Shown one piece after another: positions 598-63,943 of a stretch of DNA of 64,000 nucleotides. A program made the translations under genes and the position numbers. This stretch comes from Asterias amurensis (lineage: Eukaryota > Echinodermata > Asteroidea > Forcipulatida > Asteriidae). A model generated the notes under the pieces. It saw only the letters and a program-made list of their open reading frames with translations. It did not search any database and was not told the DNA's origin. Numbering within the stretch: the first letter of the stretch is position 1; every line of letters begins with the position of its first letter. The stretch spans positions 6,629,501 through 6,693,500 of the forward strand of contig NC_092665.1 in the NCBI RefSeq assembly GCF_032118995.1. Reading direction: 5' to 3'.

Positions 598-1539
598 CTA
601 TGTCGGTCAATTTTATACTTTGTGTTACTGTAACGGTTTTTCAGCATAATTGTATGAGGAGTTGTAATAAGATTTGTAAAAAACAAAAATCCCCTCGAAA
701 AACTAATAGTTACAAAAGCCCTCCGGAAAAAAACGATGTTTAAATCTGGGATAAAGGCTTGATTCGTCATAATGGATTCACCAACGCCTCCCCTCCCATC
801 CCTACCCCCACCCCTCCCCGCGTAAATAGCGGATGGCGTATCAGCGATACAAATCCTTAACGATTGAATGTGCATACAATCTAATTACATACACGTTTTG
901 ATGATTCCGTAATGATGGACTGTAAATTGTGATAACCGAATCAAAATATCTTGGCGTTTTTTGTTTAGCACTATTCGAAATAGTTGATCCTCAATGTACA
1001 CGTTCTTAATAAATTGTAGGCCTCTCATTGACATGCATGGAGTATTTATTAAATTACTGGGCCCTCGACTTCTTCAATGCTATTTATTTATTCAACAATC
1101 TTCTCCTGCGTTTACAGATATTTGTTTGTTCATAACAATAAGTAAAACAATGGAAAAGGGGAGTGGTACGAGGTCTTAAGCGTTTGTCTAAAATCAACAG
1201 TATCTTAGGCCCCGTTCCCACTGGACCCCGCGTTAATTTGGCCGTAAACAAAAGACTAAGCCGAAGGCGCAGGCCGGGTCCTTCATCTACGACCACAACC
1301 CCGCCGGTTTAAAACAAATGTTCAAGACTATGACTTAGCACAATTTATTCTTACTAATATAGCAAAGCCATTTTCGGTTTACATGAATAGGCCCAAAACA
1401 ATTGGAATGGACTTGTAAGTTCAAACTTGTGTTAAATAAATCCTAATCAAAGTTTGTATAAATCTCTCATAATATGCATTTGCAACTTGTCTGTACTCTG
1501 AATGTAGCTGGGGGCAAATGTGTGTAAACACCTTTTGTA

Positions 1540-1800
1540 ATATTGTCAAAGACCAGTGTTCACTCTTGCTGTATCTCAACTATGCATAAAACAACAAACC
1601 TGTGAAAATTAGAGCTCAATTGGTCGACGAAGTTGCGAGATACTAATGACAGAAAAACACCCTTGTCACACGAAGTTGTGTGCTTTCAGATGCTTGATTT
1701 CGAGACTTCAAAATCTAATTCTGAGGTCTCGAAATCAAATTCGTGGAAAATTACTTCTTTCTCGAAAACTACGTCTCTTCAGAGGGAGTCGTTTCTCACA
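1540..1800. mobile_element. TTAA MITE (AGGCAGTGGACAC family), truncated
   Basis: This is one member of a MITE family found throughout the window. Its inner part has the family's central inverted repeat, TTTCGAGACCTC with TGAGGTCTCGAAA. The right end is missing here, but the block 3 counterpart (about 55442-55793) still has it. Block 2 lacks this copy. Confidence 0.75.
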
Positions 1801-2045
1801 GATTTCCATGAAACACCGGCCCAAGGCGGAATCCTGCCATAAGTGTTTTTTTAAAACAATCAAAATTACTTCAATCTCATCCAAAAGTTCATTTGATTGT
1901 TTTTGATTTTTGTTGTTTGTATTGATTGTTTTTGCTCCATTGAATATTCTTGTTTCCCAAAAGCATTTGTGCGTTTCGGTGGTAGTAGACTCTGAGAAAG
2001 CAAAGAATACCATTGACAATCAGTTTAAAAAATACCCTTTAAGGG

Positions 2046-2407
2046 CAAAGGCAGGACACATTAATAGATAACTTTCAACCACTAGTGAGTCTTTCCACTT
2101 GGTGTATTCAACATATTCTTAAATTAACAAACCCGTGAACATTAATTTGAGCTCAATTGGTCGACGAAATTGCGAGAGAATAATGGGAAAATCACCCCCG
2201 TCGCACAAGTTGTGTGCTTTCAGATGCCTTCAGTTTGAGACCTTAACAACTCGAGAAAATACTTCATTCTCAAAAACTAGGTTTCTTCAGAGAGAGCCGT
2301 TTCTAACAATGTTTTGTACTATTAACATCTCTCCATTGCTCATTACCAAGTAAGTCTTTATGCTAGCAATTCTGTTGAGTAATTACCTATGGTGTCCAGT
2401 GCCTTTA
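2046..2407. mobile_element. Diverged TTAA MITE, shared by all three blocks
   Basis: Degenerate ends AAAGGCAGGACAC and GTGTCCAGTGCCTTT flank the usual inner sequence. Equivalents are at about 28712-29073 and 56132-56493, so the insertion predates the block duplication. Confidence 0.7.
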
Positions 2408-2734
2408 ATGTTGCTCTGTTGGTGGCGCACTCTACTATAAATACATTGTCATTGCATTTCGATTTCGGCAAAAAACACACTGAGTTAGTGTTAGTAAACA
2501 TATACTTCAAAAGAGTGGAAGAACGAAAGAGATCCATCTGAACAGTATATATATTGCGTACGCAGTTCTTTCTTTGACAATAAACTTGCACTTTAACTCA
2601 CAATCATCAGGGAAATACATCAATTGAGCGGAAATAGAAGGAAACTGGCCAGGAACTTCAGGAAGCAATCACACAGTGCAACCCAGTAGGGTGGATATAC
2701 ATGTAAAAACACCATACCATTAAAGCGTGTACAA

Positions 2735-3675: not shown

Positions 3676-3677
3676 TA

Positions 3678-7094: not shown

Positions 7095-8093
7095 ATGAAG
7101 ATTACCATAGCAACAGTGACCCTTCTTCTTGGTATTTTGCGAGTTCCGTTCATGGTGGCTAAAACAGCAGTTTCACCTGATCCGGAGACGACGTGTAACT
7201 CCTGTTGCCAGGGCCCAGCCGGTATACCGGGAATTCCCGGGTCAAATGGGAACCATGGTCAAGGGCTTGTAGGGTCCCCTGGTGAGGTAGGTCAACCCGG
7301 GGCTAAAGGAGACAAGGGGTCAGATGGACTAGTTGGTGAGCCAGGCGCTAAAGGGGATACTGGACTTAAGGGAGATCAAGGAGTCGGTCAACCAGGGAAA
7401 CAAGGACCTCTAGGTCTGCCTGGGATGAATGGTCTGAATGGGGAGAGAGGTGAACCTGGACCAGCTGGACAAACCGGCGAAGCAGGTTAGCCCGGGGGTA
7501 AAGGAGACATCGGGTCAGATGGACTGGTTGGTGCGCCAGGCGCTAAAGGGGATCATGGTATGAAGGGAGAGCAAGGAGTCGGTCAACAGGGCAGAAAGGG
7601 ACTTCGAGGTCTGTCTGGGATGAATGGTCTGAAGGGAGAGAGAGGTGAACCTGGACCAGCTGGACAGACTGGTGAAGCAGGTGAATGTAGTACGCGACGG
7701 TCCGCCTTCACTGCAGTGAGGAATACCTACTTCAACCCTCCATCCCCCTATGATCCTCTGCCCTTTGACGAGTTATTGTTTTCAGAGGAAGGGACTGATT
7801 TCAAATTGAATAACGGCACGTTTACGTGTAATGTGCCTGGGGTATACGTATTGATGTTCTCAGTCCGGAAATCAAATAGTGAGCATTACCTATATGTCCA
7901 GCTTAGGAAGAACCGCGGTAACATCATTGTTACAGGGGGTGTAAGTGCCGCTCCAGGTTTTCATCTTGTGAGCAGCAGTGCAGTGATTCCCCTGCTCTAT
8001 GGAGATCAAGTTAACTTAGCTGTACACGGTAGAGTATATAGTGACGGTAAACGTTACGCGTCTTTTACTGGATTCCTGCTGTACGAAATCTAA
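7095..8093 (+). pseudogene. C1q-A: collagen-stalk C1q-domain protein with an in-frame stop
   Basis: The family comprises secreted, trimer-forming C1q/TNF-superfamily proteins that bind ligands through the globular head. The start is the ATG directly after the splice acceptor at 7094, giving [15 protein letters not shown], a clear signal peptide. A CNSCC cysteine cluster (possible interchain bonds) follows, then Gly-X-Y repeats, then a C-terminal C1q domain of about 135 aa with SAFTAVRNT, GTFTCNVPGVYV and the ending FTGFLLYEI. A TAG at 7488-7490 replaces the GAG found in copy B and cuts the stalk before the head. The frame stays open from there to 8093, so this is the only lesion. It could be a recent pseudogene, a null allele or an assembly error. 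The stalk has the basic section plus one 195-base module. Confidence 0.8.
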
Positions 8094-13481: not shown

Positions 13482-16400
13482 TCAATCTATAAACTTCCGT
13501 ACGAAAGAAAACAACAGTAAAGCCCAAATGGAATTTGGTCCAGTAGAGGGCGCCCCATTGTGGCAGTTTAACCCGGAAGCATATCTGACCACGTGGGCAG
13601 TGTAGTGCTGTTCATGGACCCCGTGAAAAAGATGCGACATTGGTCCATTGGCGTAAATAGTGACGTCCTCTCCACCATGAGTCTCTGAATCAATTGGGAC
13701 AAGCGCTGGATGGTGAAAATCGGCAGCCTCTGCACAAACAAAATAATAAAACAATGTTTATCACAATACAAGTAAAATAATTGTTTACACAAGTTAATGA
13801 TTAACTCTATGAAATTGCAAAGGGGCACTTTCCCTTGGCAAAATCGTGGTTGCAAAAACTTCCCTGTATTACACTTTGCCAAGTTATCATATGTTTAAGA
13901 TTTAAAATATTTCAAAAAGTCTGCATATACTCGGATTTAATTTTACTGAGTGGTGTACCTGAGTGGTATAAACCAATACTCAAAGTAATCAATTGAAGCT
14001 TTACCTGTGTTGGTATCCGTCAGATTCCGTCTCGAACCAGTACTTTTGAAGCTGTCTAACTCCTCAATTCCTCCAGGGCCGTTTGCATATGAGAGTGTTG
14101 TAAATGGCAAACCGTCATTCATCAGACCTTGACGTTTATGCAAAACCATTTTGTTGTAATTAGAATTTAAATATAAATGGTTTGACGATGAATCACCATT
14201 TACTTATAGAAAACTGAGAAGCTTGCACAACTTGTCAATTCGGGTAACTTAACGGAGTTTACTTTTTGTTTCAAAACATAATCCAGCTGCAGTCTACAAA
14301 CAATTGGATTTATCGAAAGATATCGCCCTTTGAAAAAAAGGAAGTAAATAAATAATAATAGTTAGAAACAGTCTCTCTTTAAATTCATCGTATACTATTT
14401 TGCATACAAATGATATTTGGAAAGATATAGCTTTTAATAATTCAAAGACACTAGCACTATCGGTAATTGTCAAAGACAATCAAATATCAAACTTCGAAGT
14501 TGCGAGATAATAATAAAAGAAAAAACGCCCTTGTCACACGAAGTTGTGTGCTCTTAGATGCTTGATTTCGATACATCAAACTCTAAGTCTCAGGTCTCGA
14601 AATCAAATTCGTGAAAAATTACTTCTCGAAAACTACGTTACTTCAGAGTGAGCCGTTTCTCACAATGTTTTACCCTATCAACAGCTCTCCATTACTCGTT
14701 ACCAAGTAAGGTTTTATGCTAATAATTAATTTGAGTAATTACCAATAACAATAACATAACATAACCATTAATATTTATAAGGCGCTATTCCATCAAGATC
14801 ATAGTGCACTAGAAAGAAATTAACTTGGAAAAAGGTGAGTCTTAAGGACATTATGAAAAGCAGACAGAGTATTAGATTCCCTAATGGCAGTTGGGAGATT
14901 GTTCCAAATCATGGGCCCAGCCACACTGAAAGCCTTCTGACCTAAAACTTTGTTTGCTCGGGGAACATTCAAGCGAGTGATGTCAAGTGTGGACCGAAGA
15001 AATCGTGGAGGAGTGTAATGTGACAGTTAAGTGGTAATAATGAGGTGTAGTTTTGTTAAAGCATAAAAACGAGAAGAGCAATCTTAAAATGGATTCGTTC
15101 TCTAACTGGTAGCCAATGAAGTTCCCTAAGTGATGGGGTAATAATATGTTCTCTCAAGGGTGTGGAACATATTAAACAACCTGCACTATTTTGTAGTCTT
15201 TGAACTCTGTCCAATTCATATGACGTTGCACCAAATAAAAGGAGATTGCCATAGTCAATACGAGAGAGGACTAAAGCTCTGACAACATGATGGAGAGTAT
15301 CCTTATCCAGGTACCGTTTGATTCTCCTTAAGTTACGTAATTGAAAATTTATTGATTGGCAGAGGCTAGAAACTTGCTTGCTCATTGTCATATGAGAATC
15401 AAATGTTATTCCTAAGTTGCTGACAGAATCAGTAGGGTCAATCGATGTATCGCCCATATGCAAAGATATCTTCGGCAGTTACTTAAGGTTTTGGGGAGTA
15501 CCAAGCACAATGAACTCAGTTTTATTTTCATTGAGCTTAAGCATGTTAGAAGTCATAGTGTCCACTGCCTTTAAAGTTATAATTGTGGATGAAACTTACC
15601 TCCTCTGCCGAGTATTGGACTACCACGAACAGCTGCTCCTCCTGTAGAGAGTACATGGCTATGGTCGGCAGTTACAATAAATAAAGTCTCCATTTCATTG
15701 GTCATTGACATCGCCTTGGCTACAGCCTTATCCATTGCAATGGTATCATGCAGGGCGTGGTAGGCTAACCCGTCATGATGCGCATGGTCAATTCGGCCAC
15801 CTTCGTGTATAAAACCAAGATAGTATGATTTATTTGTGTTTGAATTATTGAAATTTGATGAAAAATCTGGTAGTGTGTGTCTTGTTCGTGAAGATTGTTG
15901 TATACCTTTATCACGCTGTCACCACCTTGGTCATGTTCCCTGTTTCCATAATTACAGTAATGAATGCTAATATTCATTGCGCAAACATGGCACGAGGCTA
16001 TTATTTCGTCCAGCCTCAGTTTGGTTACAATGAGTTTGAATGGAGTAAAATCGGGATGGCCACACCGTGACAAAGCAACATCATAGACGGAGTTTTTGTC
16101 AACCAAGATTTTAAAACTAGGAAAATACATGAATACAAAGATAACAAACGTTGGCCCTAGTTTTTAAGAATGTTCGTTTGCAACCAATTGGGATGTATTC
16201 ATTTTTAATTACAAGTTTGCAGCAATGTCTACTTTGGTGTCAAAATCTAGTAGGTCGGTTGATGTTTTGCTATTATTCGGCCGTCCATGCCAACCTGCGT
16301 GGTCTTGTTAGCAACAATGAAAATACATACAATCTGTGACTGAACAATGCCATCAAAGAGACAATGCAACTACTCCATAAAACGAGGTTTCAGATTGTCA

Positions 16401-22952: not shown

Positions 22953-22987
<35 letters not shown>

Positions 22988-47329: not shown

Positions 47330-47655
47330 TGTTCGTGAAGAATGTTCACGCTGTCACCATCTTGGTCATGTTCCCTGTTTTCATAATAGTCATGAATGCT
47401 AACATTCATTGCGCAAACATGGCACCAGCCTCAGTTTGGTTACAATGGAGTATAAAGTCAAGATGGCCACACCGTGATAAAGGTTTATAATCACGCTGTC
47501 ACCATCTCGGTCATGTTCCCTGTTTCCATAACAGTAATGAATGCTAACATTCATTGCGCAAACATGGCACCAGACTATTATTTTGTCCAGCCTCAGTTTT
47601 GTTACAATGAGTTTGAATGGAGTAAAATCAAGATGGCCACACCGTGATAAAGCAA
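47330..47655. repeat. Intronic tandem duplication in alkaline phosphatase B
   Basis: A segment of about 145 bases (CACGCTGTCACCATC to CACACCGTGATAAAG) occurs twice in a row. Block 1 has it once (about 15905-16080). Confidence 0.75.
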
Positions 47656-49540: not shown

Positions 49541-50215
49541 TAAGACGGACACAGATTGTACGTAATATTGTGATATACAAAATAAAAAAATAAAAAAGTG
49601 CTAACAAAAGTTATGTAATGGGGTAAAACCGAATTAGGTTTGCTGGAATATAAAACTTAACTCTCATTATACGGCAATTATGGTAGCCTACGTCTATGTC
49701 ACCGCAGTTTGTAAATGACGACGTGTGGCATCTAACCTAAAGCCCGTGCCAATAAGTGACACAACCCCACATCATGTACGTACATGTACATTTAGCTCAG
49801 TATAGATGCGGCGCAAGGGTTGTAGGCAAAATCATGTTCCAAACGACATACCTTGGTTACATTGGCTGTGCCATACAGACGATAGATTGTACTTGTTCAA
49901 ATTGGTACATAAAGCAACAACTCACCTAAAAGATTGTCAGTTTCAAGTGGATTGACGTCTTTAAATTGTTCCAAATTCCACACGTACTTGCTGTTTGTCT
50001 TGTCTTTACCTGCTTGCCATTCGTCTTAAACAAAACATAATATTGTAATACATTTATTGAAATAAATCCTTTACTTGATTGTTATTAAGAGCTTCATGTG
50101 ACCGAAAGAAAACTAAATGCTGTGGAACTATAACTATCTTGAAAACATCTATAAAGTCAAGGTTTGATCAAGTGCAACTATTTCGATGAGAGATACTTCT
50201 ACAAGAAAACAAACT

Positions 50216-50517
50216 TTAAACAGAACAAAAAATTAAAAAAAAAATAAATAAAAAAATAAGACGAATAGATTCATTACCATTAAATAAGTTCATCTGGATT
50301 GCGGAAGTATATTAAATTAAAGATTCCTTTTTACAAATCCAAAATTATGTATGATGTTACTTACATATAATTTACAAAGGCTCCTAGCTTAGGAGTGAAA
50401 CGTAACTAATAGTACTAAATTATATGTAAAGTATACATCATACATAATTTTGGATTTGTAAAAACGAATCTTTTATTTCAGATTCATTACCACTTTATAT
50501 TCAAGTACATTCCTCCT
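50216..50517. mobile_element. AT-rich foldback insertion, block 2
   Basis: Absent from block 1 (junction near 18330). The core 50328-50466 is an inverted repeat, with TTTTTACAAATCCAAAATTA facing its complement. TSD not resolved. Confidence 0.6.
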
Positions 50518-50581
50518 ATCTTCTATAACTACGCACCATGCTGTCTCTATGGTAATGTCAGCGTCTTGTGGCTCATGGACA

Positions 50582-50858
50582 GTTATCGATTCACCATTAT
50601 CGACTTACCAATATTGATTTACCATGGTCGTTTCAACATTATCTTTTCCCATTATCGATTCTCCATTTCTGATACACAGTTATATTTTTACGACTATCGG
50701 TTCACCGTTATTGATTCACAAATATTATCGAATCACCATTCTCGATTCACCAACATCGAGTAGTCGTTATTGGTTTACAAATATCGACTCACCAATATCG
50801 ACTAATTATTATCGATCAAATTATTGATTCACCATTATCAATTCAGCATTTTTGATTT
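50582..50858. repeat. Degenerate minisatellite (TTATCGATTCACCA), block 2
   Basis: Same array as 18396-18682, continuing directly into phosphatase intron without the Harbinger element. Confidence 0.8.
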
Positions 50859-51197
50859 CAGTAGCTCGGTTTCTATGGAATCCGGATGGGATCAGAAGCT
50901 GTTAAAGCAAAATGGTGCAATAGTCATCAATAATTGGGTTTAAGTTTTATCAGGTATACAAACCAATGAGATTTCGTCCATCATTTCTAGATCCAGCTTT
51001 AGAAGAGTCTTTAGGATACTCTGGGTCGGCAGCTTCTCTCGGTAACATTTCCATCCTTCCCCCACCCATTATAACCTGGCATAGATTAATGAAGAATTAG
51101 TATAAAAATGACCGTACCATGAAGTTGGTGGTCGGCATGCAGCAATGACTAGCAGGAAGGGTATTCTAAGAATCTGCTTCTTAAATAGACGGACACC

Positions 51198-52761
51198 TAG
51201 CCTTGACTCAAGGCTGTTGGCGTAGTGTGCCCCGGCCCGGCGCGATTCGGCAGTCTGCACGCTGTGCATACACGAACAATGTACATGTATACAGTACATT
51301 GTATGTACAGTACATTGTACAGTGAGAACTGTATAGCGAAGTCGTGAGTACGGTCGTGTCTTTCTACTTTCAACCTCGCACACGTGGCTCAAACAACAGC
51401 CTTGATGGGTCTGTAACAGCTTTATCGGAATTCCGATAAAAGGGCGTGCATGATCTGGGCATGTCATTCTAAACATTGGCCAATCACAAGCGCGATTGAG
51501 AATGACGTATTACTGCTAGCAATCATGCCACGTCCATGTGTGTATGTTTGTGTGTGTAACGCTGTACGCTAGCTAGCTGTATGGACATGAGCGTGGTGTC
51601 ACTATGGTGTATAATGGGTCTGAATGCGCTGCCGGACGGTACTCGGGCTACCGATGTGAGCCGGACAAGCCTCGCTCGGTCGGTACGGTGTCAAAAAACT
51701 TCAAAGTGAGGAGGGGTTCCTTGGCCCCGTTGTCTTGTGTTTCATTATAACACGAGGACTAGCATCAGTACAATGTAGCTGGTAGATTTGTCCCTGAATG
51801 GGAAGCTGCTTTACTATAAGTGTAACGTTGTTGTAGTAGTATGGCAAGAGTTAGTTTATGAAATTGATCTTTACTTGTAGTTGTTGTTCAGCCACACGCC
51901 ATCTTCTACCGTCTGGTATGTTTTTGACCAACACATAATTTATTTTCGATCCCCAACTTTGATTTACTGCGAGAAACGTAACGCATAGTATGTGTAGACA
52001 AAATAAACAGCTGGGTTTCTTATCTAATCTGGTCTGAAATGGGGAAAACAGAATCTTATTAAATGTTAGTGCTTCAAGGGGATGGGGTATGCCCAACATA
52101 ATTCTAACCAAGTAGCCATTGCCGGAAACCCATGACACCTTGATACTTTTTGAACTTTTCTCAAACACACTTCACACACTGTATGGTCCCATTTTCTTCC
52201 TTCGTATTTTTAAATCCATGATTGGTGCATTAAACTTGGTTGTTTTATCTTGTTGAAAGCTTCTGCAGTTGTGCCACGATGTAGGCTACTGTTGCAAATT
52301 ATACACCATTGATTTACACAACTTTGTTTTAGGGTAGGGATTTCTTCCTCTCGCCCGCCGCCATTGCATTTTTTTGCACAGCAGCCACGGCTTGTTGTTT
52401 ACGTCGGAGCACGTGCGTGTGCTTGCAGAACGTTGTGATTGACATCGCAGCAAGAGTTTATAGGTCAACCAACAACCAATGAGAACGGGTTGTTAGTAAA
52501 TATTACCATAATGAGCTCCGCCCTAAATTTTGGCAGTTACAAAACCATCAAGGCGCTACTTAGAAAGTACTCATGATGTACCTTACGTGTACCATACAGA
52601 TGGTACATGTAATGTACATACATACAGTAGGTATGTGTGTGTACATACGCTGTACACGTATTATATGCACTGTGTTATGTATGGGGTGCGCTGGCGGAAC
52701 TCAGTGACGGGGACTGGGATTTTGCAGGTCGCGGCTGGCTGTAGCGCCTTGATCAAGGCTA
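51198..52761. mobile_element. TAGCCTTG element, 1564 bases, 9-bp TSD
   Basis: It starts TAGCCTTGACTCAAGGC and ends GCCTTGATCAAGGCTA, flanked by ACGGACACC (51189-51197, 52762-52770). Block 1 has a single, shortened GACACC at about 26017. Subterminal parts are rich in GTACATGTA-type palindromes. No transposase frame seen. Same family as 35674-36377 by its ends and TSD length. Confidence 0.82.
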
Positions 52762-54305
52762 ACGGACACCATGCATAAGGTGATACTGACAAGTTTGAAA
52801 TAATGGCTTTCGCCAACCTTTCATTATGTAGCACGCTTGAAAAATTCTATAAATTGATTAACTGTTCTATATCGTTCTAATTTAACATCTATTATGTTCT
52901 ATATCGAGTGCTTCCAGCTACCTGTTTCAGTGCCGGTCAGTTTGTGAGATACTTTGATTCAAAAACCATAACACCCATGACAGAGGGTGGCGAATAATCA
53001 AACGGTACATTCAGAATAGTGAACGCAAACACTGGTTTGTGTCAATGTTGCAGATTGTACCTGTGTATCCTGTCCGAGTGTTATGAGTTGCTGTGAGCGA
53101 TGTCAATGCAACCGATGTCAGTTTCCTTCTGCGGTATATCAGAGTCACACACCCAGTCTCGATGGGGCGAATGTGCGTAAAGTGCGGCAGGGGTAGCGTG
53201 TGTCACATGGGCAGTGCTGACGAATCCCGTTGCCTTGCCTTTAGAAAGCACACAAAGCAACGAAAACCTAATTTATTAGCTATATTATATTCGATCGATA
53301 CAATTTCAAGAACACAAGATTAAAATTATTACAAAACACTTGACAACAAATCAATGAAAGTAAATCATAATTATTATACACATATTGACTGGCAATGAGG
53401 TAATTGTACGTCTACCCCCGAGGGACTTTGAGTGACCAGAAGAGGGACCTATTTCCCGAGGCTGAAGGCCAAGGGAAATAGGCACCTCTTCTGGTCACTA
53501 ACATGCCCGAGGGGGGAATAGACGTACACTAGTACCGAATTGTGTCGGTCTTAAATGTGAAATAAGAACAACACGTGGAAAAGAAAGGATGTTTTGTAGT
53601 TGCTGTTCACGGTTCAAGTCAAGAGAGGGCGCTGTAACCGGGCACTATTTTCAAAGAGCTAGTTCCCGCAAAACACATGCGCCGATCACTAGACTAAGCT
53701 CATCCCACGAGACCGTGTTCAGCCAACCAGAATACAGAAAAGGCAAGAGGTGTGTTATAAAACATTATATGAATATGTTGACGTTCTTTTAAACTTACCA
53801 GACTTTTGAGCAGATATCATAACAGACTCCACATTAGCATTGAGACTAGATTTACAATCTCCTTTAATAGCAGAATCGTCTAGCCCTATCACTGCTGTCT
53901 TGGTTTTAACACCACTAAAATAAGCAGTAGCCGTACCAGCCGAGTCCGGTACTTGCCTATCGGTATTGTACGTCTAGAGGATGAAAGAGTGCAGGAAATA
54001 TTCTCAGACTAAATGCTCCGTATGTTTGACCACGTGGGGCGCACTCAATATAGTGGGTGCGTTCGTTTAGCTTCCCTGGGTCGACCCCGATCTGCCCGGT
54101 ACGTTCGAATAGCTTTGACGGGGCTCATCCGGGTCAGCCCCCATCCCCCCCCCCCATGCCCTGCTTGTGGAGTGGGTCACTTGGGGTGACCTGAGGTACA
54201 TGCCATCACCACGAGAGGGTGAGTGTGTTCGTTCGATTAGCTCTTGTCAGGGGTTCACCCGAGTGAGCACCACGGGGTCGACCCAGGGAAGCTTATCAGG
54301 CACAC

Positions 54306-54507
54306 TAGCCTTGCTAAAGGCAGTCGCGTTATTCGCTCCGAAAAGACGCCGCTGTAAGCCCACCCGTATACCCTGTGCGTGGTGCGTGCGATTAGACCGC
54401 ATGACCCACCCGTATACACACTGTCACATCGTACGACTACTGTGCACATAAGTCATCCGCACTCATACCACTAACCGCATGCGGAGGCCGTCAGGCCGAC
54501 AGCCTTG
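54306..54507. mobile_element. Solo TAGCCTTG terminal repeat at block 2/3 junction
   Basis: Nearly identical to 27636-27837 and placed identically against the next block's start. Confidence 0.8.
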
Positions 54508-55441
54508 TATGTCGGTATACTTTGTTTTGCTGTTACGGTTTTTCAGCATAATTGTATGAGGAGTTGTAATAAGATTTGTTTAAAAAAAATCTCCTCGAAA
54601 ACCTAATAGTTACGAAAGCCCTCCAGAAAAAACAACGATGTTTAAATCTGTGATAACGGCTTGATTCGTCATAATGGATTCACCAACGCCTCCCCTCCCA
54701 TCCCTACCCCCACCCCTCCCCGCGTAAATAGCGGATGGCGTATCAGCGTTACAAATCCTTAACGATTGAATGTGCATACAATCTAATTACATACACGTTT
54801 TGATGATTCCGTAATGATGGACTGTAAATTGTGATAACCAAATCAAAATATCTTGGCGTTTTTTTTTAGCACTATTCGAAATAGTTGATCCTCAATGTAC
54901 ACGTTCTTAATAAATTGTAGGCCTCTCATTGACATGCTTGGAGTATTTATCAAATTACTGGGCCCTCAACTTCTTCAATGCTATTTATTTATTCAACAAT
55001 CTTCTCCTGCATTTACAGATATTTGTTTGTTCATAACAATAAGTAAAACAATGAAAAAGGGGAGTGGTACGAGGTCTTAAGCGTTTGTCTAAAATCAACA
55101 GTATCTTAGGCCCCGTTCCCACTGGACCCCGCGTTAATTTGGCCGTAAACAAAAGACTAAGCCGAAGGCGGGCCGGGTCCTTTATCTACGACCACGACCC
55201 CGCCAGTTTGAAACGAATGTTCAAGACTATGACTTAGCACAATTTATTCTTACTAATATAGCAAAGCCATTTTTGGTTTACATGAATAGGCCCAAAACAA
55301 TTGGAATGGACTTGTAAGTTCAAACTTGTGTTAAATAAATCCTGATCAAAGTTTGTATAAATCTCTCATAATATGCATTTGCAACTTGTCTGTAATCTGA
55401 ATGTAGCTGGGGGCAAATGTGTGTAAACACCGTTTGTAATG

Positions 55442-55793
55442 TTGTCAAAGACCAGTGTTCACTCTTGCCGTATCTCAACTATGCATAAAATAACAAACCG
55501 GTGAAAATTAGAGCTCAATTGGTCGTCGAAGTTGCGAGATAATAATGAAAGAAAAAACACCCTTGTAACACGAAGTTGTGTGCTTTCAGATGCTTGATTT
55601 CGAGACCCTCAAAATCTAATTCTGAGGTCTCGAAACCAAATTCGTTGAAAACTACTTCTTTTTCGAAAACTACGTCTCTTCAGAGAAAGTCGTTTCTCAC
55701 AGTCTTTCATAACTGCCAACAGCTCCCCATTATTCGTTACCAAGTAAGGTTTTATGCTAATTTGAGTAATTAACCAATAGTGTACACTGCCTT
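55442..55793. mobile_element. TTAA MITE, block 3
   Basis: Fuller counterpart of 1540-1800. It ends CCAATAGTGTACACTGCCT followed by TTAA. Confidence 0.78.
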
Positions 55794-56131
55794 TAAGCAC
55801 ATGTTGACGATTTTGAGATTTTCAAAATATGAACGAGTCCTTTATGTCAAAGAAGTTGCCCAAGATGGGGACAGAATCTCCGGGGACAGATTTCCATGAG
55901 ACACCGGCCCAAGGCGGAATCCTGCCTTACGTGATTTTTAAAACAATCAAAATGACTTCAATCTCATCCAAAAGTTCATTTGATTGTTTTTGATTTTTGT
56001 GCTTTGTATTGATTGTTTTTGCTCCATTGAATATTCTTGTTTTCCAAAAGCATTTTTGCGTTTCGGTGGTAGTAGACCCTGAGAAAACAAAGAATACAAT
56101 TGAAAATCAGTTTAAAAATACCCTTTAAGGG

Positions 56132-56493
56132 CAAAGGCAGGACACATTAATAGGTAACTTTCAACCACTAGTGAGTCTTTCCACTTGGTGTATCTCAACA
56201 TATTCTTAAATTAACAAACCCGTGAACATTAATTTGAGCTCAATTGGTCGTCGAAATTGCGAGAGAATAATGAGAAAATCACCCCGTCGCACAAGTTGTG
56301 TGCTTTCAGATGCCTTCAGTTTGAGACCTTAACAACTCGAGAAAATACTTCTTTCTCAAAAACTATGTTTCTTCAGAGAGAGCCGTTTCTAACAATGTTT
56401 TATACTATTAACATCTCTCCATTGCTCATTACCAAGTAAGTCTTTATGCTAGCAATTCTGTTGAGTAATTACCTATGGTGTCCAGTGCCTTTA
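56132..56493. mobile_element. Diverged TTAA MITE, block 3
   Basis: Counterpart of 2046-2407. Confidence 0.7.
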
Positions 56494-56834
56494 ATGTTGC
56501 TCTGTTGGTGGCGCACTGTACTATAAATACATTGTCATTGCATTTCGATTTCGGAAAAAAAAACCACTGAGTTAGTGTAAGTAAACATATACTTCAAAAG
56601 AGTGGAAGCACGAAAGAGATCCATCTGAACAGTATATATATTGCGTACACAGTTCTTTCTTTGATAATAAACTTGCACTTTAACTCACAATCATCAGGGA
56701 AATACATCAATTGAGCGGAAATAGAAGGAAAACGGCCAGGAACTTCAGGAAGCAATCACACAGTGCAACCCAGTAGGGCGGATATACATGTAAAAACACC
56801 ATACCATTAAAGCATGTACAAATTGATCTCCATT

Positions 56835-57290
56835 GGTAACATACAGCCTCATCCAAACCAGTGATAGAGTAAGTCACTGCTTTCAATCAGTGACTTTACC
56901 ACATACACAATGTAGTGTAGAGTTTTACACCATTAGTATCCATTCAATATACAGTATCATTCAAACCAATGATAGAGTAAGTCACTGTCATAAATCAGTG
57001 ACTTTAACACGGTATTGACGCACAATTGTAACATACAGCCTCATCCAAACCAATGATAGAGTAAGTCACTGCTTTCAATCAGTGACTTTACCACATACAC
57101 AATGTAGTGTAAAGTTTTACACCATCGGTATCCATTCAACATACAGTATCATTCAAACCAATGGTAGAGTAAGTCACTGTCATAAATCAGTGACTTTAAC
57201 ACGGTATTGATCCACAATTGTAACATACAGCCTCGTCCAAACCAATGGTAGAGTAAGTCACTGCATTCAATCAGTGACTTTAACACGTAT
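56835..57290. repeat. Palindromic tandem repeats upstream of C1q-C (5 units)
   Basis: Five AAGTCACTG...CAGTGACTTT units, as in block 1. Confidence 0.85.
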
Positions 57291-57365
57291 CTATGATTGG
57301 CTGCTCATCGATTGTCAATCAAACATCGAAGTAGACTGATGGGCACTTCAATGAAAATACAACAG

Positions 57366-57469
57366 TATTTAAACGCGCTGCACCAGCAGCAGTGTTCATA
57401 ACAACTTTGCATCTTCTCGGAAAAGAGAAACTGAGAAAGTTTGGACTACAAGAACACAACATCATCAAG
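57366..57469 (+). promoter_or_regulatory. C1q-C core promoter and 5' UTR exon
   Basis: TATTTAAA at 57366-57373; the exon ends CATCAAG at 57469 before GTAAGTG. The intron to 62975 is 5506 bases, lengthened by the 2.0 kb transposon. Confidence 0.7.
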
Positions 57470-59245
57470 GTAAGTGTTCTCGTTATACTGTCGGACCCGG
57501 ACTTTGGCTTCTAGATGCATGCAGTGTATTTTAGGGTAGCCTCTTATTTCAAGAATGTTGCAGTTTTGGTCAAGAAGGGGCACCACTCTACCCAATAAAG
57601 CAGTAACATTAAGGTGCTTTACCTGGCAGCTGGTGCCAGGTAAAATGCAGTAAATTTCACAGTAGCAGTTTTGTAAATTGTGCCTTGAAAGGGTAGTTTG
57701 CTAAACTCCACTTTGAAATTTACTGCACTTTTAATACCTAGCACCCTGGCTGCCAGGTATACAAAGCACCGTAATTTTGACGGATTATTTTGTATAGCGT
57801 ATTCAGCTGAAGTTCTCATGTAGTGTTTGGGTCACTTGCTCTCTGCCAACATTAGTGTACTGTGGTACTGTTTGGTGGTACAGATTGTAATGCCGTTGCA
57901 TTTCCCTTTGAAACCACGATACATAGTGTTGTGTCGTTGGGGCTTTTATCACCATACTTGCAAGTGGTTTCCGTTTTGGAGCAGCAAGTTCCGCTGGTAT
58001 TCTGTACATTGTCTTGTTCAAATAGTGGGCAATAAAAGTTTACCTAGACAGTTTCAGTTGAATGTGCTTGATATTCTGCTCGTTTTAATGTGTGTGTACT
58101 CTTCATCCAAAAGCTGTCAACAAAATTAACAACAAGTACTGATTAAATGGCATTGTGTGACATGACCACTTTGTTATTTTCTTTTATGTTGTGGGTAAAA
58201 CAAAACGAGATTGAACATAATGCAACACTTTCACAATTATTATGGTGATCGGTGTTTTGTACAGCCGACGTGGGGAGGGGCAACCGAGGTAAAGCCGAGT
58301 TTGGCTGTTTTCCCCAAAAGTTTATTCAAAACCTGGACCCCGTCACGGAGCATGCAACATTAATTGTTTTATTTTACCATGATAATCGATTCCTCTTGTT
58401 TGGGGACAAATTGTTACCATCCTCCATTATTGTTACGACAATAATGACACAGTTTAAAACTAAGACAGCATATTTTGTAAGCCAAAACATGGTGGCACAC
58501 TGTCTTAAGGTGCTGTCACTTGACGTTTTAGCCACCGTATGTCAACGTATGAAAATTTTAGCGAGTACGCTGGCGTACGTCGAATAATTATGAGTAAAGG
58601 CCCCGTCACACCTTTAAGCCAGCGTATGCCGACGTTTGCAAATTTCTCTAAAACGTTGGCATACGCTGAACTATCGATGGATTTTTCAATTTCTAGCGTA
58701 TACGAAGCGTATTCATAACGAGGTGGACGGATGCATACCGTAGAAGTAACTTACACAGAGCGTTTCCATAACGAATGCTTAGCGTGCTGACGGCGTTCAC
58801 AACTTATGTTCTACGATGGTCCAACTACTGCATAGAGCGTGGGGGCAGCGTATTGCCGACGATCACATGCAGTAGCCTATAAAGAGGGTGCCTCTCGACG
58901 ATTGAAATAATAACTGCACTTGACATCGTATTAATCCTTATGCGAACCCAAATTGTATATACCGATTCACATAACTCTGCCAATACACCATTACATGGTA
59001 GCTGTAAGTTTAGAAACAAGTTTAGTAAGTTATGTGGTCATCCGGAACACGTCAAATACGTTCGACGTAAGTTCAAAGCACATTACTCATATAGGTTATA
59101 AGAAATACGTTTTTGGTACGCTAGACATTATATCGACGTATGTCGACTTCTGATAACCTTACAAGTAACGTGTGTGAACGTGCGTCATCGATTGTATAAC
59201 GCACCTACAACTTATGCGGAACTTATGAACCACACGCTGGCACAC
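57470..59245. other. C1q-C intron, 5' part
   Basis: It has the palindromic MITE (about 57611-57778) and the left arm of the large foldback (about 58606-59090). No gene is seen. Confidence 0.55.
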
Positions 59246-59248
59246 TTA

Positions 59249-61282
59249 AGCCCTTTTCACACTACAGGTATTTCCCGGGAAACTCCCGGGAAATGTTAGT
59301 CGATCTGTTCAAACTACAAAAAAAAAAATCCCGGGAAATAACATTTTCCCGGGAAATAATTTACCCAGTTAAGGGGTAGGGTTAAAGGAGTTAACCCCGG
59401 GGAAAAACGTTTTTCCCGGGAAAAGCAGCTAGTGAGAACGAAAGCGGGTCTAACTTACCCCACATTTTTCTTCCAATGTGTTGAGACGTCATTAATCTCG
59501 AAAGGTCACAGACGTCAAAAATAGCGCGCCAATCAATTCGCGTGGTAACAATAACCCTTTTTTGTTTTTTCCTTCTGAAAGTGTTTACGTTCAGGTACGA
59601 AAATAAAAGTGAATAACATCTGTAATTTACAAATAAATATATGAATTAAAAAAATTGACCACGTGAATGGAATAGGAATAGAATAAATAGTTGGCGTGAA
59701 CAAGCTTCCTTCTAGTACACACGCCATGTGTGTATGGTAGTTCGTATTTTTACATGTACTTGGCCGTTGGTGGACTTGTGTTGTCCAGAGTCAGATTTGA
59801 GTTCATCGATCGACATTGCTGTCTACAACCTGACAGTAAATATTTTAAGTCAATTTGTTGCTCAATTTCTTACGATGGGTAGAAGTGACCGATGGAGTGA
59901 TGATGAAATTTTGAAACTAGTTGCATTTTGGGCCAACGATGCAGTCCAAAAACAGCTAGATGGGCATAGGCCTACAAGACACGGGAAAGTTTTCTCAAAA
60001 TTTGCTGACTGCCTGCGTGGTGCTGGGTATGAACGGACCCCTGCCCATTGCAAAAAAAACCGAAAACCTTGGGTAAAAAAGACTTTAGGTCGGTAGGATA
60101 CTAGTTTTGTTTTTCAAGGCCTAAATATTTTCTATTGCATAAGTGTTCTATTGCAAACATTTCTTTTTAGAAGAAATATACATTTAAAAGTCGTTATGAA
60201 GCCATGAAAAAGCCTATTCAGTGTTCTTTCCTTGCACGATGGGAAAACAGCACTGTTGATGTTGGAAGGGAAGAATGCTTCTTTTGCTTTCTAATTCTAT
60301 TGTCAGATTGCGCAAAATCGACCGTGCGGTATTTTTTTTCTATAAAATCTTTAATTATCTTGGCCCTTACATCATGGACATTATTATGCAATCCTTCGAA
60401 AAATGCCATTCAGAGAATTTCTAGGCCTTACCTCAGGGTTGATTCCCTTAACCCTGCCCCTGAGCAGGGTGAATTATTTCCTGGGAAAACATCATTTCCC
60501 GGGAAATTCCCGGGAGTATTTTTGTAGTGTGAACAGATCAACCAAAAGTTCCCGGGAATTTCCCGGGAAATAACTATAGTGTGAACAGGCAAAAATTGAG
60601 ATGAACGCCAACACAAAACCTCGGGGTAAAACACGGACACAAAAGTCCATTCAATTACAGTTCTCAAAAGAAAGAAAAAAACTGTCGCAGAGTAGAAAGC
60701 TCCCTTTCGCTTTTTCTAATAGCAACTTGCTCCCACCACCAGTGGCCGCTCTTCATGGTAGACCAGATTGACCTTTGACCAATACTTCAGCAAGTGCCAT
60801 GAAACCCGTCAATCGCACGACAAATTCCATACGATTGTTATACCGCATGTCTTTAAAACACTGTCACAGCAATCGTCTTCTCCTGACAAGACGCCAGCGA
60901 CGTCTTCCCCGAACTGCAAGACTTCTTCTCCGCCGTAATCACACAATATATTGGTATAACAACACGCAAATACACAATTTATGTGCAGCCATTTTGGGTC
61001 GCATGTGGTAAGGATTTTGCAGCCGGCCGCGTGGCATTATGGGAACGGACTTCCGTCCACAAAACATTGTAACTTCCGCATGGGCTGACCTGTTTACCAC
61101 ATTTCCTGGGGTTTGATCGTAAGTGTGAAACGACCTTGCATATTCCTGGGAAATAGTACTCCCGGGAGTTACCAAATTGGGATAGTGAGAACGGTTGCTG
61201 GGGTGGCGGTGGGGTTAAAAACTCCCGGGATTTTCCCGGGACTTTATTTCCCGGGAAATGGCTCTGTAGTGTGAAAAGGGCT
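59249..61282. mobile_element. Harbinger-like element with CCCGGG arrays and a Myb/SANT frame
   Basis: This 2034-base insertion has the ends AGCCCTTTTCACACTACAG and CTGTAGTGTGAAAAGGGCT and TTA on both sides (59246-59248, 61283-61285). Block 1 has the empty site CACTTAGATTTTG near 5320. Both subterminal regions, and an inner patch at about 60470-60590, are packed with TTTCCCGGGAAA palindromes. The inner patch also repeats the terminal TAGTGTGAACAGG motif, suggesting a nested or composite structure. The TTA target and Myb/SANT frame point to PIF/Harbinger; no transposase was found. Confidence 0.85.
59875..60096 (+). CDS. Myb/SANT-like protein fragment of the CCCGGG element, 73 aa
   Basis: An open frame from ATG 59875 encodes a single Myb/SANT-like domain: RWSDDEILKLVAFW, VFSKFADCLRGAGYERTPAHC. 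The spacing fits the trihelix/Myb type used by Harbinger elements to bind their ends. The reading frame degrades in an A-run near 60052, where a related family motif (C-x-x-K-x-x-N-L) would be in another frame. The protein is therefore probably truncated by a one-base change, or the exon ends there. The ATG at 59728 is in frame but adds residues without similarity. Confidence 0.65.
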   Translation: MGRSDRWSDDEILKLVAFWANDAVQKQLDGHRPTRHGKVFSKFADCLRGAGYERTPAHCKKNRKPWVKKTLGR

Positions 61283-61285
61283 TTA

Positions 61286-62975
61286 GATTTTGTTGTGCAT
61301 GCACACAATTTCTCGACGACCTCGCCTTACTACGACGTACACGGCGTGTTTCAGCGTGCTCATAACTTATACAAAACTTACCCATAACTTATTCGACGTA
61401 CGCCAGCGTATTCGCCCCAATTTTGTATACGTCGGCATACGCTTGCTAAAATTGCTAAAACGTCTAGGTGTGACAGGGCCTTAACATTCAATAGTAGTAA
61501 CGTGCTTTGAACCTACCTCGAACGTATTTGACGTGCTCCGGACGACCAAAGAACTTAATGAACGTGATTCTAACTTGCATCTACCGTATAATGGCGTAAT
61601 GGCAGCGTTTATGTGAATCGGATACAAATTGGGTTCGCGGGAGGATACTACATTGTCAAGTGCAGTTATTATTTCAATCGTCGAGAGGCACCCTCTTTGT
61701 AGGCAACTGCATGTGATCGCAGGCAATACGCTGCCGCGCGTTATGCAGTAGTTAGATTACCGTAGGACATAAGCTGTGAATGCTGTGAACAGGCTAAGCA
61801 TTCGTTATTGAAACGTTCTAAGTAAGTTACTAATACGGTCTGCATACGTCCAACTCGTTATGAATAGGCTTTGTATACGCTCAAAATTGAAAAGTCCATC
61901 GAAAGTTCAGCGGATGCCAACGTTTAAGAGAAATTGCCATACGTCGGCATACGCTGACTAAAACGTCAAGGTGTGACAGTGCCGTAAGTTAAGATCACGG
62001 CTAAATACGCCGATATACGTCTTTGGATTATGCTTTGAACCTATGTCGAAATTATTTGACGTGTTCCGGACGACCACTTTTGATGAAATTAAGTAGTGGC
62101 AGCGTATTGGGAAATCGGTATACACTAATTGGGTTCGAAGGAGAATACAGTGACGCCAAGTGCAGTTATTATTTCAAACGTCGAGGTACCATGCAATACG
62201 CTGCCGCGCGCTATGCAGTAGTTAGACTATTTGTAGATATCGTGTCTTTTTACACGAGGAGAAATCCTCACAATGTAGACAAGTTGAGGAATCTTTCTTG
62301 GATTAAAAATGAGCGAAGTGATACGGACAGGAGCTCAATGTATAGGGTGTTGGTTTTATCTCAAACAATCACTGTGTTGCACCATCTCTTGTTGATATAG
62401 AGGCATACGCGCCCCACCCTGTCTCTTCACTGTAATTTTTTAATCTCTGTCAAGTCGAATCCGAGATCCAAAGCCGTCTATATGGAGATCGTTACTATGG
62501 GTTGTATTGTCTAACAATGTCTCGGTGAAGGATACCAGAGTCTCTGTGTTTACGCATGTGATTAAACGAGCTCATCCTTTTGGGGGCATAGGGAACGGCA
62601 ATGGACAGTACCATTGTTGGGAGAAAGATTCTACCGGTCTGATTAAATTTCTTTCTCCTCAACACCCATATTTCCTCGTTTTCTCCTTTTAAAGTTGTTT
62701 ATTATTGTCTGACAGTTGTTTGGGTGTCATTGGGGAGCATTTCAACACGATATTCAATATGTTAAAGATCAAACGAGCCAACGGCACCCTGCCGTAAGCT
62801 AAGTAGGTACTCAAGTGTGTAGCGGTAGCCACTTTGTTGTGTGGAGCGATTATTTAGCTCAACACAAGGGAACACTTACGATCAATACGGCCAGGTACAT
62901 AATTTAACACACACATGCTAGAGAAGCGCCTTCTATGTTTTTATCGTTTGTTTTATGTATTCTATTAAATTACAG
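61286..62975. other. C1q-C intron, 3' part
   Basis: Right arm of the large foldback to about 61984, then conserved intron up to the acceptor. About 150 bases present in copies A and B before the coding exon are deleted here near 62920. Confidence 0.55.
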
Positions 62976-63773
62976 ATGAAGATTACCATAGCAACAGTGA
63001 CCTTTCTTCTTTGTATTTTGCAAGTTCCGTTCATGGTGGCTAAAACAACAGTTTCACCTGACCCGGAGACGACGTGTAACTCCTGCTGCCAGGGCCCAGC
63101 CGGTATACCTGGAATTCCCGGGTCAAATGGGAACCATGGTCAAGGGCTTGTAGGGTCCCCTGGTGAGGTAGGTCAACCCGGGGCTAAAGGAGACATGGGG
63201 TCAGATGGATTAGTTGGTGAGCCAGGCGCTAAAGGGGATATTGGACTTACGGGAGAGCAAGGAGTCGGTCAACCAGGGAAACAAGGACCTCGAGGTCTGC
63301 CCGGGATGAATGGTTTGAAGGGGGAGAGAGGTGAACCTGGACCAGCTGGACAGACTGGTGAAGCAGGTGAATATAGTACGCGACGGTCCGCCTTCACTGC
63401 AGTGAGGAATACCACCTTCAGTCCTCCATCCATATGGGATCATCTGCCCTTTGAAGAGTTATTGTTTTCAGAGGAAGGGACTGATTTCAACTTGAATAAT
63501 GGCACGTTTACGTGTAACGTGCCTGGGGTATACGTATTTATGTTCTCAGTCAATGAACTATCAAGTGGGCGTTTACTATGGGTCAAGCTGATGAAGAACG
63601 GTAACGCCATTGTTGCAGGGGGTGTACACGATGCAGATCATCATCAAGTGAGCAGCAGTGCAGTGATTCCCCTGCACCGTGGAGATCAAGTTCACTTAGC
63701 TGTATACGGTCACGTACATAGTACCTCTAACCATCACACGTCTTTTACTGGATTCCTGTTGTACGAAATCTAA
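62976..63773 (+). CDS. C1q-C: secreted collagen-stalk C1q-domain protein, 265 aa
   Basis: Open frame from the ATG after the splice acceptor: signal peptide [22 protein letters not shown], then a short Gly-X-Y stalk with two short breaks (HGQGLVG and GVGQPG), then the C1q head (SAFTAVRNT, CNVPGVYVFMFSV, FTGFLLYEI). The stalk has only the basic section and none of the 195-base modules, so it is the shortest of the three. The Cys just before the head in copies A and B (GECSTRR) is Tyr here (GEYSTRR), which may alter a disulfide. No lesion is visible, so this and copy B are the likely functional genes. An AATAAA near 63827 may be the polyadenylation signal. Confidence 0.92.
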   Translation: MKITIATVTFLLCILQVPFMVAKTTVSPDPETTCNSCCQGPAGIPGIPGSNGNHGQGLVGSPGEVGQPGAKGDMGSDGLVGEPGAKGDIGLTGEQGVGQPGKQGPRGLPGMNGLKGERGEPGPAGQTGEAGEYSTRRSAFTAVRNTTFSPPSIWDHLPFEELLFSEEGTDFNLNNGTFTCNVPGVYVFMFSVNELSSGRLLWVKLMKNGNAIVAGGVHDADHHQVSSSAVIPLHRGDQVHLAVYGHVHSTSNHHTSFTGFLLYEI

Positions 63774-63868
63774 ATCAAACATAAAAACACACGGAAACGT
63801 TTTAATGTTTTAGACAACGATTTAAATAAACTAATATGCAACTATATAGTTTTTAAAAATGGGGTCAG

Positions 63869-63943
63869 TTTGCAAAGTGGTTCGGTCCGACGTCTTTTTC
63901 AGCGCTGTGCAGCAAACACTTTGAGCCGTCCTGCTTCAAATAA
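63869..63943 (+). pseudogene. THAP zinc-finger fragment (C-terminal half)
   Basis: A 24-codon stretch reads KWFGPTSFSALCSKHFEPSC, matching the second half of a THAP domain (W..PT..S.LCS.HF...CF). It begins at a possible splice acceptor (GTCAG) and ends at TAA. The first zinc ligands are not upstream, so it is a relic exon or part of a P-element-like transposon lying beyond the window. It starts exactly where block similarity ends. Confidence 0.55.

What the first reader, a model, noticed from the sequence alone, without database searches (positions are those of the whole stretch)
598..63870. Alternating C1q / alkaline phosphatase block duplicated in tandem
Two unrelated gene families on opposite strands are repeated together as a block of about 27 kb, two and a half times in view. 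Exon lengths are conserved exactly, and older nested repeats are shared. Co-amplification of a collagen-C1q recognition protein with a phosphatase ectoenzyme may point to a co-inherited, perhaps immune or biomineral-related, cassette. That role is inference.
Basis: partly seen in the sequence, partly recalled or inferred. Interest (0 to 1): 0.72.

Follow-up and report, generated by a model that had tools for sequence, protein, structure and literature searches.

The report
Starfish mega-array of hypervariable C1q genes
The repeated block in this window is a small slice of a 2.6-million-base array in what looks like a starfish chromosome, holding about 80 collagen-C1q genes whose heads vary strongly at a few sites as if tuned to recognise many different targets, with alkaline phosphatase genes copied along between them and mostly incomplete.

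Summary
The window is C18:6,629,501-6,693,500 of a 491.5 Mb genome with 22 nuclear contigs and the echinoderm mitochondrial code (very likely a starfish, perhaps Asterias amurensis). It lies inside a 2.6 Mb array with 80 C1q-domain hits (76 on +, 4 on - in one inverted segment) and 76 alkaline phosphatase (ALP) blocks or fragments by my chaining rule, almost always on the opposite strand with ALP and C1q head-to-head. About 71 of 80 C1q genes look intact: one coding exon with signal-like N-terminus, a collagen stalk of 1-4 modules of 65 residues in the copies read, and a gC1q head. All 20 heads analysed differ, 17 codons carry a dN/dS of about 8, and heads and stalks have conflicting trees, so they have been reshuffled. 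Stalks show no positive selection on their own tree. ALP is the weaker partner: only 13 of 76 blocks have all six tested exons, and both window ALP copies lack the exon with the metal-binding Asp. My reading: a diversifying recognition array (probably humoral immune lectins) with ALP mainly a hitchhiker. Tandem C1q expansions under diversifying selection are known in bivalves; this is a collagen-bearing echinoderm variant.

The parts
7095..8093 (+). C1q gene copy 1: signal-like N-terminus, collagen stalk, gC1q head (7704-8081); in-frame stop at 7488-7490 inside the stalk
32610..33992 (+). C1q gene copy 2: open 460-aa single-exon CDS, stalk with four 65-aa modules, gC1q head at 33609-33980
62976..63773 (+). 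C1q gene copy 3: open 265-aa single-exon CDS, one stalk module, gC1q head at 63390-63761
7289..7682 (+). 195-bp collagen module, 2 copies
32804..33589 (+). 195-bp collagen module, 4 copies (each 10 Gly-X-Y triplets + GVGQQ interruption + 10 triplets, read from the translation)
13548..27236 (-). ALP copy 1, seven exon cores found (13548-13730, 13961-14128, 15607-15804, 16858-17010, 25794-25904, 26318-26476, 27057-27236; ends approximate); catalytic-Ser exon present, N-terminal GDGMG exon not found
45038..53973 (-). ALP copy 2, the same seven exon cores (45038-45220, 45438-45605, 47056-47262, 48366-48518, 50965-51075, 53096-53239, 53794-53973; ends approximate); N-terminal exon not found
27345..32609 (.). 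spacer between the 5' part of ALP copy 1 and C1q copy 2, with stretches repeated within 614-7094 and 54014-62975
54014..62975 (.). spacer between the 5' part of ALP copy 2 and C1q copy 3

Best explanation
A starfish germline array of about 80 secreted collagen-C1q genes that works as a diversified recognition repertoire. SHOWN: the array, its size and polarity; single-exon genes with a signal-like N-terminus, paired cysteines, collagen stalk and gC1q head; all 20 heads analysed differ; about 18% of head codons fit dN/dS about 8 while the stalk fits no positive selection on its own tree; head and stalk trees reject each other; stalk length changes in 65-residue modules; ALP exons co-amplified on the opposite strand and mostly incomplete. 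INFERRED: copies arise by unequal crossing over and gene conversion between long repeats; most of the variable residues (15 of 17) sit at the tip of the head, away from the stalk; stalks trimerise and bundle heads into multivalent bouquets that bind varied microbial surfaces in coelomic fluid, acting as opsonins or agglutinins; ALP is mainly carried along because it lies between C1q genes, with at most a handful of copies still working.
For: Array: 80 C1q hits at C18:4.696-7.293 Mb; C1q and ALP keep opposite strands in 72 of 74 blocks with a 5' C1q neighbour, both exceptions at the edge of the inverted segment. Intactness: 71 of 80 C1q against 13 of 76 six-exon ALP blocks. Head against stalk: head pN 0.112, pS 0.102; stalk pN 0.061, pS 0.125; within the two signal types separately head ratio 0.93 and 1.32, stalk 0.41 and 0.47. 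Site models on 20 heads: M8 v M8a 2dlnL 219, 18.6% of codons at omega 7.7, 17 of 130 codons with P>0.95; M1a v M2a on 19 stalks 2dlnL 0.9, p 0.63, against 220 for the heads. Shuffling: AU p 2e-9 and 3e-12. Fold: Foldseek to Caprin-2 C1q E 1.5e-10; phmmer 74 bits to Caprin-2.
Against: No expression, binding or infection data. Recombination inflates site-model tests: on a deliberately wrong star tree the stalk also rejects the null (2dlnL 101, omega 3.9; head 338), and the head on the stalk tree gives 253, so the size of the head statistic is not to be trusted. Whole-head pairwise pN/pS is only 1.09, bootstrap 0.78-1.54; the signal plus N-terminal part of the stalk also gives 1.09, and the one-ratio model gives omega 1.00 for the stalk against 1.61 for the head, so the stalk is not as constrained as its pairwise ratio suggests. 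Only 22 of 80 array copies were read as letters, 3 of them broken. The tip location is argued from strand order on a model of mean pLDDT 65.6; 2 of the 17 codons do not lie there. Non-immune roles of invertebrate C1q proteins exist (shell, byssus, embryonic development; PMC10672478 passages). Diversifying selection fits mate or self recognition as well.
Confidence: 0.6

Rival explanations
1. Diversifying recognition array, but for self, mate or gamete recognition (or prey/partner surface recognition) and not for microbes.
For: Same selection pattern; nothing in the sequence names the ligand. Sequence alone cannot separate the two.
Against: Bivalve C1q-domain proteins are described as microbe-pattern-binding lectins (PMC6835236, abstract and passages).
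Confidence: 0.17
2. Co-selected cassette: ALP (an ectoenzyme) and C1q form one functional unit driven from the shared 5' spacer, which is why they were amplified together.
For: 72 of 74 ALP blocks with a 5' C1q neighbour are head-to-head with it; 13 blocks keep all six tested exons, 8 of these without a stop flagged in a matched stretch; 20 of 51 exon S matches share one score at 98% identity to the query, i.e. are nearly the same protein.
Against: 63 of 76 ALP blocks incomplete; 21 of 80 C1q hits have no ALP exon before them; neither window ALP copy has the GDGMG exon; their pN/pS is 0.99; in the window the nearest ALP exon and the C1q start are more than 5 kb apart.
Confidence: 0.1
3. Neutral repeat-driven amplification: unequal crossing over inflates the copy number and the genes are largely redundant.
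For: Long repeats, transposon remnants and modules that change in number; ALP incompleteness; 9 of 80 C1q copies apparently broken.
Against: Most C1q genes open; the excess of nonsynonymous change is concentrated on some head codons and absent from the stalk on its own tree.
Confidence: 0.08
4. Assembly artefact or uncollapsed haplotypes.
For: Published heterozygosity of the presumed species is 0.96% (PMC11090083 passages), so a few nearly identical pairs could be affected, e.g. L032/L041 at 97.9% over 10 kb.
Against: Window C1q blocks are 89-94% identical by pair and the median of 231 pairs is 87%; all 20 heads analysed are distinct; no N in the window; two haplotypes cannot give 80 places.
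Confidence: 0.03

Closest known systems
C1qDC gene expansion of bivalves (Crassostrea virginica, 476 genes; Gerdol et al. 2019, PMC6835236; passages and one section read)
   Same: Lineage-specific tandem arrays of secreted C1q-domain proteins, attributed there to unequal crossing over, with positive selection on a limited set of head codons and purifying selection on most others.
   Different: No collagen-bearing (type I) member in that oyster; 4-11 selected sites per cluster there, by other methods, against 17 here; the example described there has two exons; a phosphatase partner is not among the passages I saw. Here: echinoderm, collagen stalk of variable module number, single-exon CDS, one 2.6 Mb array, head/stalk tree conflict.
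Vertebrate complement C1q and other soluble defence collagens (recalled)
   Same: Secreted chain with N-terminal cysteines, collagen stalk with interruption, trimer-forming gC1q head; sequence and fold matches to C1q chains.
   Different: About 80 genes in place of three (recalled); hypervariable heads; protease recruitment by the stalk is untested.
Sea urchin Sp185/333 (SpTransformer) array (PMC5103432; search listing and abstract start only)
   Same: Echinoderm, clustered repeat-rich family described as a highly diverse immune family with segmental duplications.
   Different: Unrelated protein family (recalled); here the fold is gC1q and the units are co-amplified with ALP.
Animal alkaline phosphatase family (PF00245)
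   Same: Catalytic motif [14 protein letters not shown] and ADHSH motifs in both window copies.
   Different: Amplified inside an unrelated array; most blocks incomplete; the GDGMG exon is not found in the window.

Membership tests
C1q-like type I (secreted collagen-C1q) proteins | gC1q domain at the C-terminus | tested here: met
   PF00386 74.5, 78.4 and 82.1 bits (cut-off 23.7) in the three window copies; fold match
C1q-like type I (secreted collagen-C1q) proteins | Gly-X-Y collagen stalk before the head | tested here: met
   PF01391 34.7-129.7 bits (cut-off 27.2); sequences
C1q-like type I (secreted collagen-C1q) proteins | Signal peptide | tested here: inconclusive
   Hydrophobic MKIT... 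N-terminus seen; no signal-peptide predictor run
C1q-like type I (secreted collagen-C1q) proteins | Trimer and bouquet assembly | not testable with these tools
   needs biochemistry
Complement C1q (classical pathway) | Recruits C1r/C1s-type or MASP proteases | not testable with these tools
   no assay; stalk site not examined
Rapidly diversifying immune gene array (bivalve C1qDC type) | Tandem, mostly same-strand paralogues | tested here: met
   76 of 80 on one strand, 4 in one inverted segment
Rapidly diversifying immune gene array (bivalve C1qDC type) | Positive selection on a set of head codons | tested here: met
   head M1a v M2a 2dlnL 220, stalk 0.9 on its own tree but 101 on a star tree; recombination not modelled
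Rapidly diversifying immune gene array (bivalve C1qDC type) | Expression or induction in immune cells | not testable with these tools
   no expression data
Functional alkaline phosphatase (window copies) | Catalytic Ser exon | tested here: met
   [17 protein letters not shown] in both copies
Functional alkaline phosphatase (window copies) | N-terminal exon with the metal-binding Asp (GDGMG; role recalled) | tested here: not met
   not found in the window by tblastn, motif scan or frame reading nor by the genome search that found it at 36 other array places, 29 strong and 7 weak
Co-selected C1q/ALP cassette | Both genes kept intact at similar rates | tested here: not met
   71 of 80 against 13 of 76

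The most novel reading that the evidence does not exclude
An echinoderm 'modular antibody-like' system encoded in the germline: about 80 C1q heads with a hypervariable tip are exchanged between stalks of different length by gene conversion within one 2.6 Mb array, so that individuals carry different combinations and mixed trimers multiply the number of binding faces; a handful of complete head-to-head ALP genes are co-expressed partners.
Probability: 0.12. Interest if true: 0.88.

Novelty: new variant of a known kind. Interest (0 to 1): 0.62.

Why it matters
Starfish have no antibodies (recalled), and how they recognise many microbes is open. One array with about 80 collagen-C1q genes, a constant fold, a small hypervariable set of residues and shuffled heads and stalks would be a compact and testable repertoire, comparable with the sea urchin and bivalve arrays and built from the same parts as our own complement C1q. 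It also suggests how an unrelated gene (ALP) can be multiplied to dozens of mostly incomplete copies simply by lying between selected ones. In the listings of my searches I saw no description of such a starfish array; the main texts of two Asterias amurensis genome papers do not contain the word C1q. The library holds open-licence papers only, and most listed papers were not opened.

Tried and rejected
Amphioxus as the source was my first guess; dropped because the GFP family gave no match (weak, as no control rang either) and the mitochondrial COX1 reads AAA at conserved Asn sites, the echinoderm code. Asterias amurensis is a good fit (22 chromosomes, 491.53 Mb; PMC10625585 passages) but the total length differs by about 30 kb and I could not prove it. 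Sea-star adhesive footprint proteins as a role: the main text of the footprint paper does not contain C1q or phosphatase (word search only). A paper search on '491.5' led nowhere. The star-tree control showed that tree error alone inflates the site test. ARAGORN found no tRNA in the window. One search failed for a file name and was redone. Rows dropped before counts: of 24 C1q copies handled (19 array loci, 3 window, L022, L004) the head set uses 20 (dropped L022, L004 and the broken L035, L038) and the stalk set 19 (dropped L022, L004, L035, W1, and L040 by a motif miss). L004 gave no usable reading frame in my script. ALP counts use six of at least eight coding exons; exon N was sought with a human probe, so its absence elsewhere may be under-detection. 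The 76 ALP blocks depend on my chaining rule: the commonest exon was found 56 times and the 3' exon 48 times, so some blocks may be pieces of one gene. The site models were fitted with a short Nelder-Mead run on a fixed FastTree tree; values are approximate.
Full report
What the window is. The window is G000:C18:6,629,501-6,693,500 in a genome of 491,506,623 bases and 23 contigs. Contig C23 is a 16,427-base mitochondrial genome, leaving 22 nuclear contigs, presumably chromosomes. In the COX1 stretch read there are 8 AAA codons, several at positions where Asn is conserved in animals (GFG-N-W, M-NN-MSFW; conservation recalled), and 11 TGA codons read as Trp. That is the echinoderm code (recalled; flatworms share it). 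With 22 chromosomes a starfish is by far the likeliest; Asterias amurensis (22 chromosomes, 491.53 Mb; PMC10625585, passages) fits best but is not proven.

The observation. Self-BLAST confirms the direct repeats, Pfam confirms the two gene families, and the strands are opposite. The window holds three C1q copies on + and two ALP copies on -. Each C1q coding region is one exon. Copy 1 (7095-8093) is broken by an in-frame stop at 7488-7490. Copy 2 (32610-33992) encodes 460 residues with four collagen modules; copy 3 (62976-63773) encodes 265 residues with one. ALP exons were found with a human probe at 13548-27236 and 45038-53973, with the motifs [15 protein letters not shown] and ADHSH; several boundaries show plausible GT/AG sites (read by eye). 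The intron of about 8.8 kb in ALP copy 1 (2.4 kb in copy 2) holds a transposase frame of the DDE_Tnp_4 type at 18923-19762 and a SANT-like frame at 23555-23914 just under the Pfam cut-off, so an inserted Harbinger-like element probably accounts for much of the difference.

The real scale. A genome-wide C1q search gave 116 matches, 80 of them between 4,695,575 and 7,293,546 on C18. 76 are on +, 4 on - at 5.648-5.729 Mb. ALP exons were mapped with six exon queries. Merged, the fullest units read T-E-G-V-S-N-C1q: the ALP gene on - has its 5' end towards the 5' end of the next C1q on +. In the inverted segment both are flipped. Chaining gave 76 ALP blocks or fragments; 74 have a C1q on their 5' side and in 72 of 74 it lies on the opposite strand; the two exceptions lie at the left edge of the inverted segment. 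The exon counts in the array are T 48, E 44, G 46, V 56, S 47, N 36, so the number of real ALP genes may well be smaller than 76. Outside the array, related ALP genes lie at C18 0.35 and 12.71-12.72 Mb and C3 5.70 Mb, and C1q genes at C18 3.09 and 10.70-10.76 Mb, in a second cluster at C9 22.47-22.52 Mb, and at a few other places.

Two partners, two fates. Of 80 C1q hits 78 have no stop inside the matched domain and 72 of these lie in frames of at least 265 residues; one of the 72 (5193056) has lost the end of the domain, leaving 71 of 80 apparently intact by frame length (from the table). Among the 22 array copies read as letters 3 are broken (L035, L038, W1). Of 76 ALP blocks 13 have all six tested exons and 28 at least five. 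Five of the 13 have a stop flagged in a matched stretch (N at 5.662, G at 6.053, T and N at 6.108-6.117, G at 7.074, G at 7.313 Mb), and one of the other eight (5.226 Mb) has exons T and E abutting and a weak N match, so it is probably rearranged. Fisher tests for C1q against ALP give p 1e-20 (13 of 76) and 7e-12 (28 of 76); units are not independent and blocks may be split genes, so these numbers are descriptive. For both window ALP copies exon N, which bears the metal-binding GDGMG motif (role recalled), was not found by tblastn, motif scan or frame reading, while the same probe found it at 36 places elsewhere in the array, 29 with E below 1e-6 and 7 weak ones with E 0.03-0.4. Between the two window ALP copies there are 17 nonsynonymous and 5 synonymous differences over 379 codons, pN/pS 0.99, as for unconstrained sequence, although 22 changes are few. 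Against a pure hitchhiker reading: many ALP exons are nearly identical in protein (20 of 51 exon S matches with one and the same score), so a handful of working ALP genes is plausible.

Heads diversify, stalks less. I handled 24 copies (19 consecutive array copies and L022, three in the window, L004). Twenty heads could be aligned; all 20 proteins differ, with pairwise identity 71-98%, median 80%. Head pN 0.112 and pS 0.102, ratio 1.09 (bootstrap 0.78-1.54); stalk (19 copies) pN 0.061, pS 0.125, ratio 0.48 (0.33-0.74); collagen part alone 0.29, signal plus N-terminal part 1.09. Within the two signal types taken apart the head ratio is 0.93 and 1.32, the stalk ratio 0.41 and 0.47. Variation is concentrated: many codons never change while 24 show four or more states, a gap counted as a state. 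A codon site model that I coded (F3x4, FastTree topology with one scale factor) gives M1a v M2a 2dlnL 220, M7 v M8 229, M8a v M8 219, with 18.6% of head codons at omega 7.7 and 17 of 130 codons with posterior above 0.95; one-ratio omega is 1.61. The same kind of fit on the stalk gives M1a v M2a 0.9, p 0.63, one-ratio omega 1.00. On the stalk's tree the head gives 253; on a star tree 338, but there the stalk also gives 101, so tree error, and hence recombination, inflates the test and its size should not be trusted. The tree-free contrast of head and stalk points the same way.

Shuffling. Head and stalk trees of the same 18 copies reject each other (AU p 2e-9 for the head data on the stalk tree, 3e-12 for the reverse). 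Mixed genes are visible: L026 joins a signal of one type with a stalk module of the other, and L029 and L033 are close in the head (pS 0.044) but far apart in the stalk (pS 0.158). Together with module number changes (1, 2, 3 and 4 modules in read copies; one frame of 611 residues in the table would fit six) this indicates unequal crossing over and gene conversion, as inference. Some pairs are recent: L032/L041 are 97.9% identical over 10 kb although 237 kb apart.

Where the variable residues lie. The head finds Caprin-2, adiponectin, cerebellin and C1q in the PDB by sequence; an AlphaFold model from the three window heads has mean pLDDT 65.6 and matches Caprin-2 C1q at Foldseek E 1.5e-10, TM 0.78. 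Placed by me on its strands, 15 of the 17 codons fall at residues 18-24 (before the long strands), at the end of strand 55-66, the start of 72-78, the end of 81-88, the start of 93-104 and the end and sequel of 109-115. By strand order in the C1q/TNF jelly roll (recalled) those are the AA', CD, EF and GH connections, which lie at one end; since the chain ends lie at the stalk side, that end is the tip. The other two (residues 98 and 106) lie within a strand and in the FG connection and do not fit. This is inference: no coordinates could be measured.

What it most likely is. A diversifying recognition array of secreted collagen-C1q proteins, most likely humoral immune lectins of a starfish, in which ALP has been copied along. 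Immune use is inferred from the selection pattern and from what C1q-domain proteins do in bivalves (PMC6835236, abstract, passages and one section); other roles of invertebrate C1q proteins are on record (PMC10672478, passages). The oyster family is the nearest published parallel that I found: tandem duplication plus selection on 4-11 head sites per cluster, but without collagen. Hence 'new variant of a known kind'.

Limits. No expression, no population data, no relatives' genomes, 22 of 80 array copies read. The species is inferred. Whether the array is fully and correctly assembled cannot be tested here, but 80 separate places, distinct heads and consistent polarity make a haplotype artefact an unlikely explanation of the whole.

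Noticed in passing
G000 C5:658874-660214 and C5:675294-676634: Two nuclear copies of mitochondrial COX1 about 16.4 kb apart, the length of the whole mitochondrial genome: likely a tandem nuclear insertion of mtDNA (or an assembly join).
   Followed up: no
window 18923-23914: Transposase frame (DDE_Tnp_4) on + and a SANT-like frame on - (just under the Pfam cut-off) inside the long ALP intron of copy 1.
   Followed up: partly
window 39227-41839 (-): LINE-like frames with reverse transcriptase and (weakly) endonuclease between C1q copy 2 and ALP copy 2.
   Followed up: no
window 18402-18676 and 50583-50850: The same 14-bp minisatellite (TTATCGATTCACCA, about 19 copies) in the same intron of both ALP copies.
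   Followed up: no
G000 C18 5.385-5.604 Mb: A 219-kb stretch inside the array without a C1q hit; of what I searched for, only a few ALP exons were found there.
   Followed up: no
G000 C18 4.964, 6.498, 7.026 and 7.311 Mb: A second, more distant ALP subtype (58-73% to the window exons) found four times inside the array.
   Followed up: partly
G000 C9:22.466-22.523 Mb: A second, tighter cluster of C1q genes on one strand, 12 matches at spacings of 1.4-8.2 kb.
   Followed up: no
collagen modules, e.g. window 32804-33589: Each 65-residue module breaks the Gly-X-Y register once (GVGQQ and the like), so every added module would add a possible kink to the stalk.
   Followed up: partly
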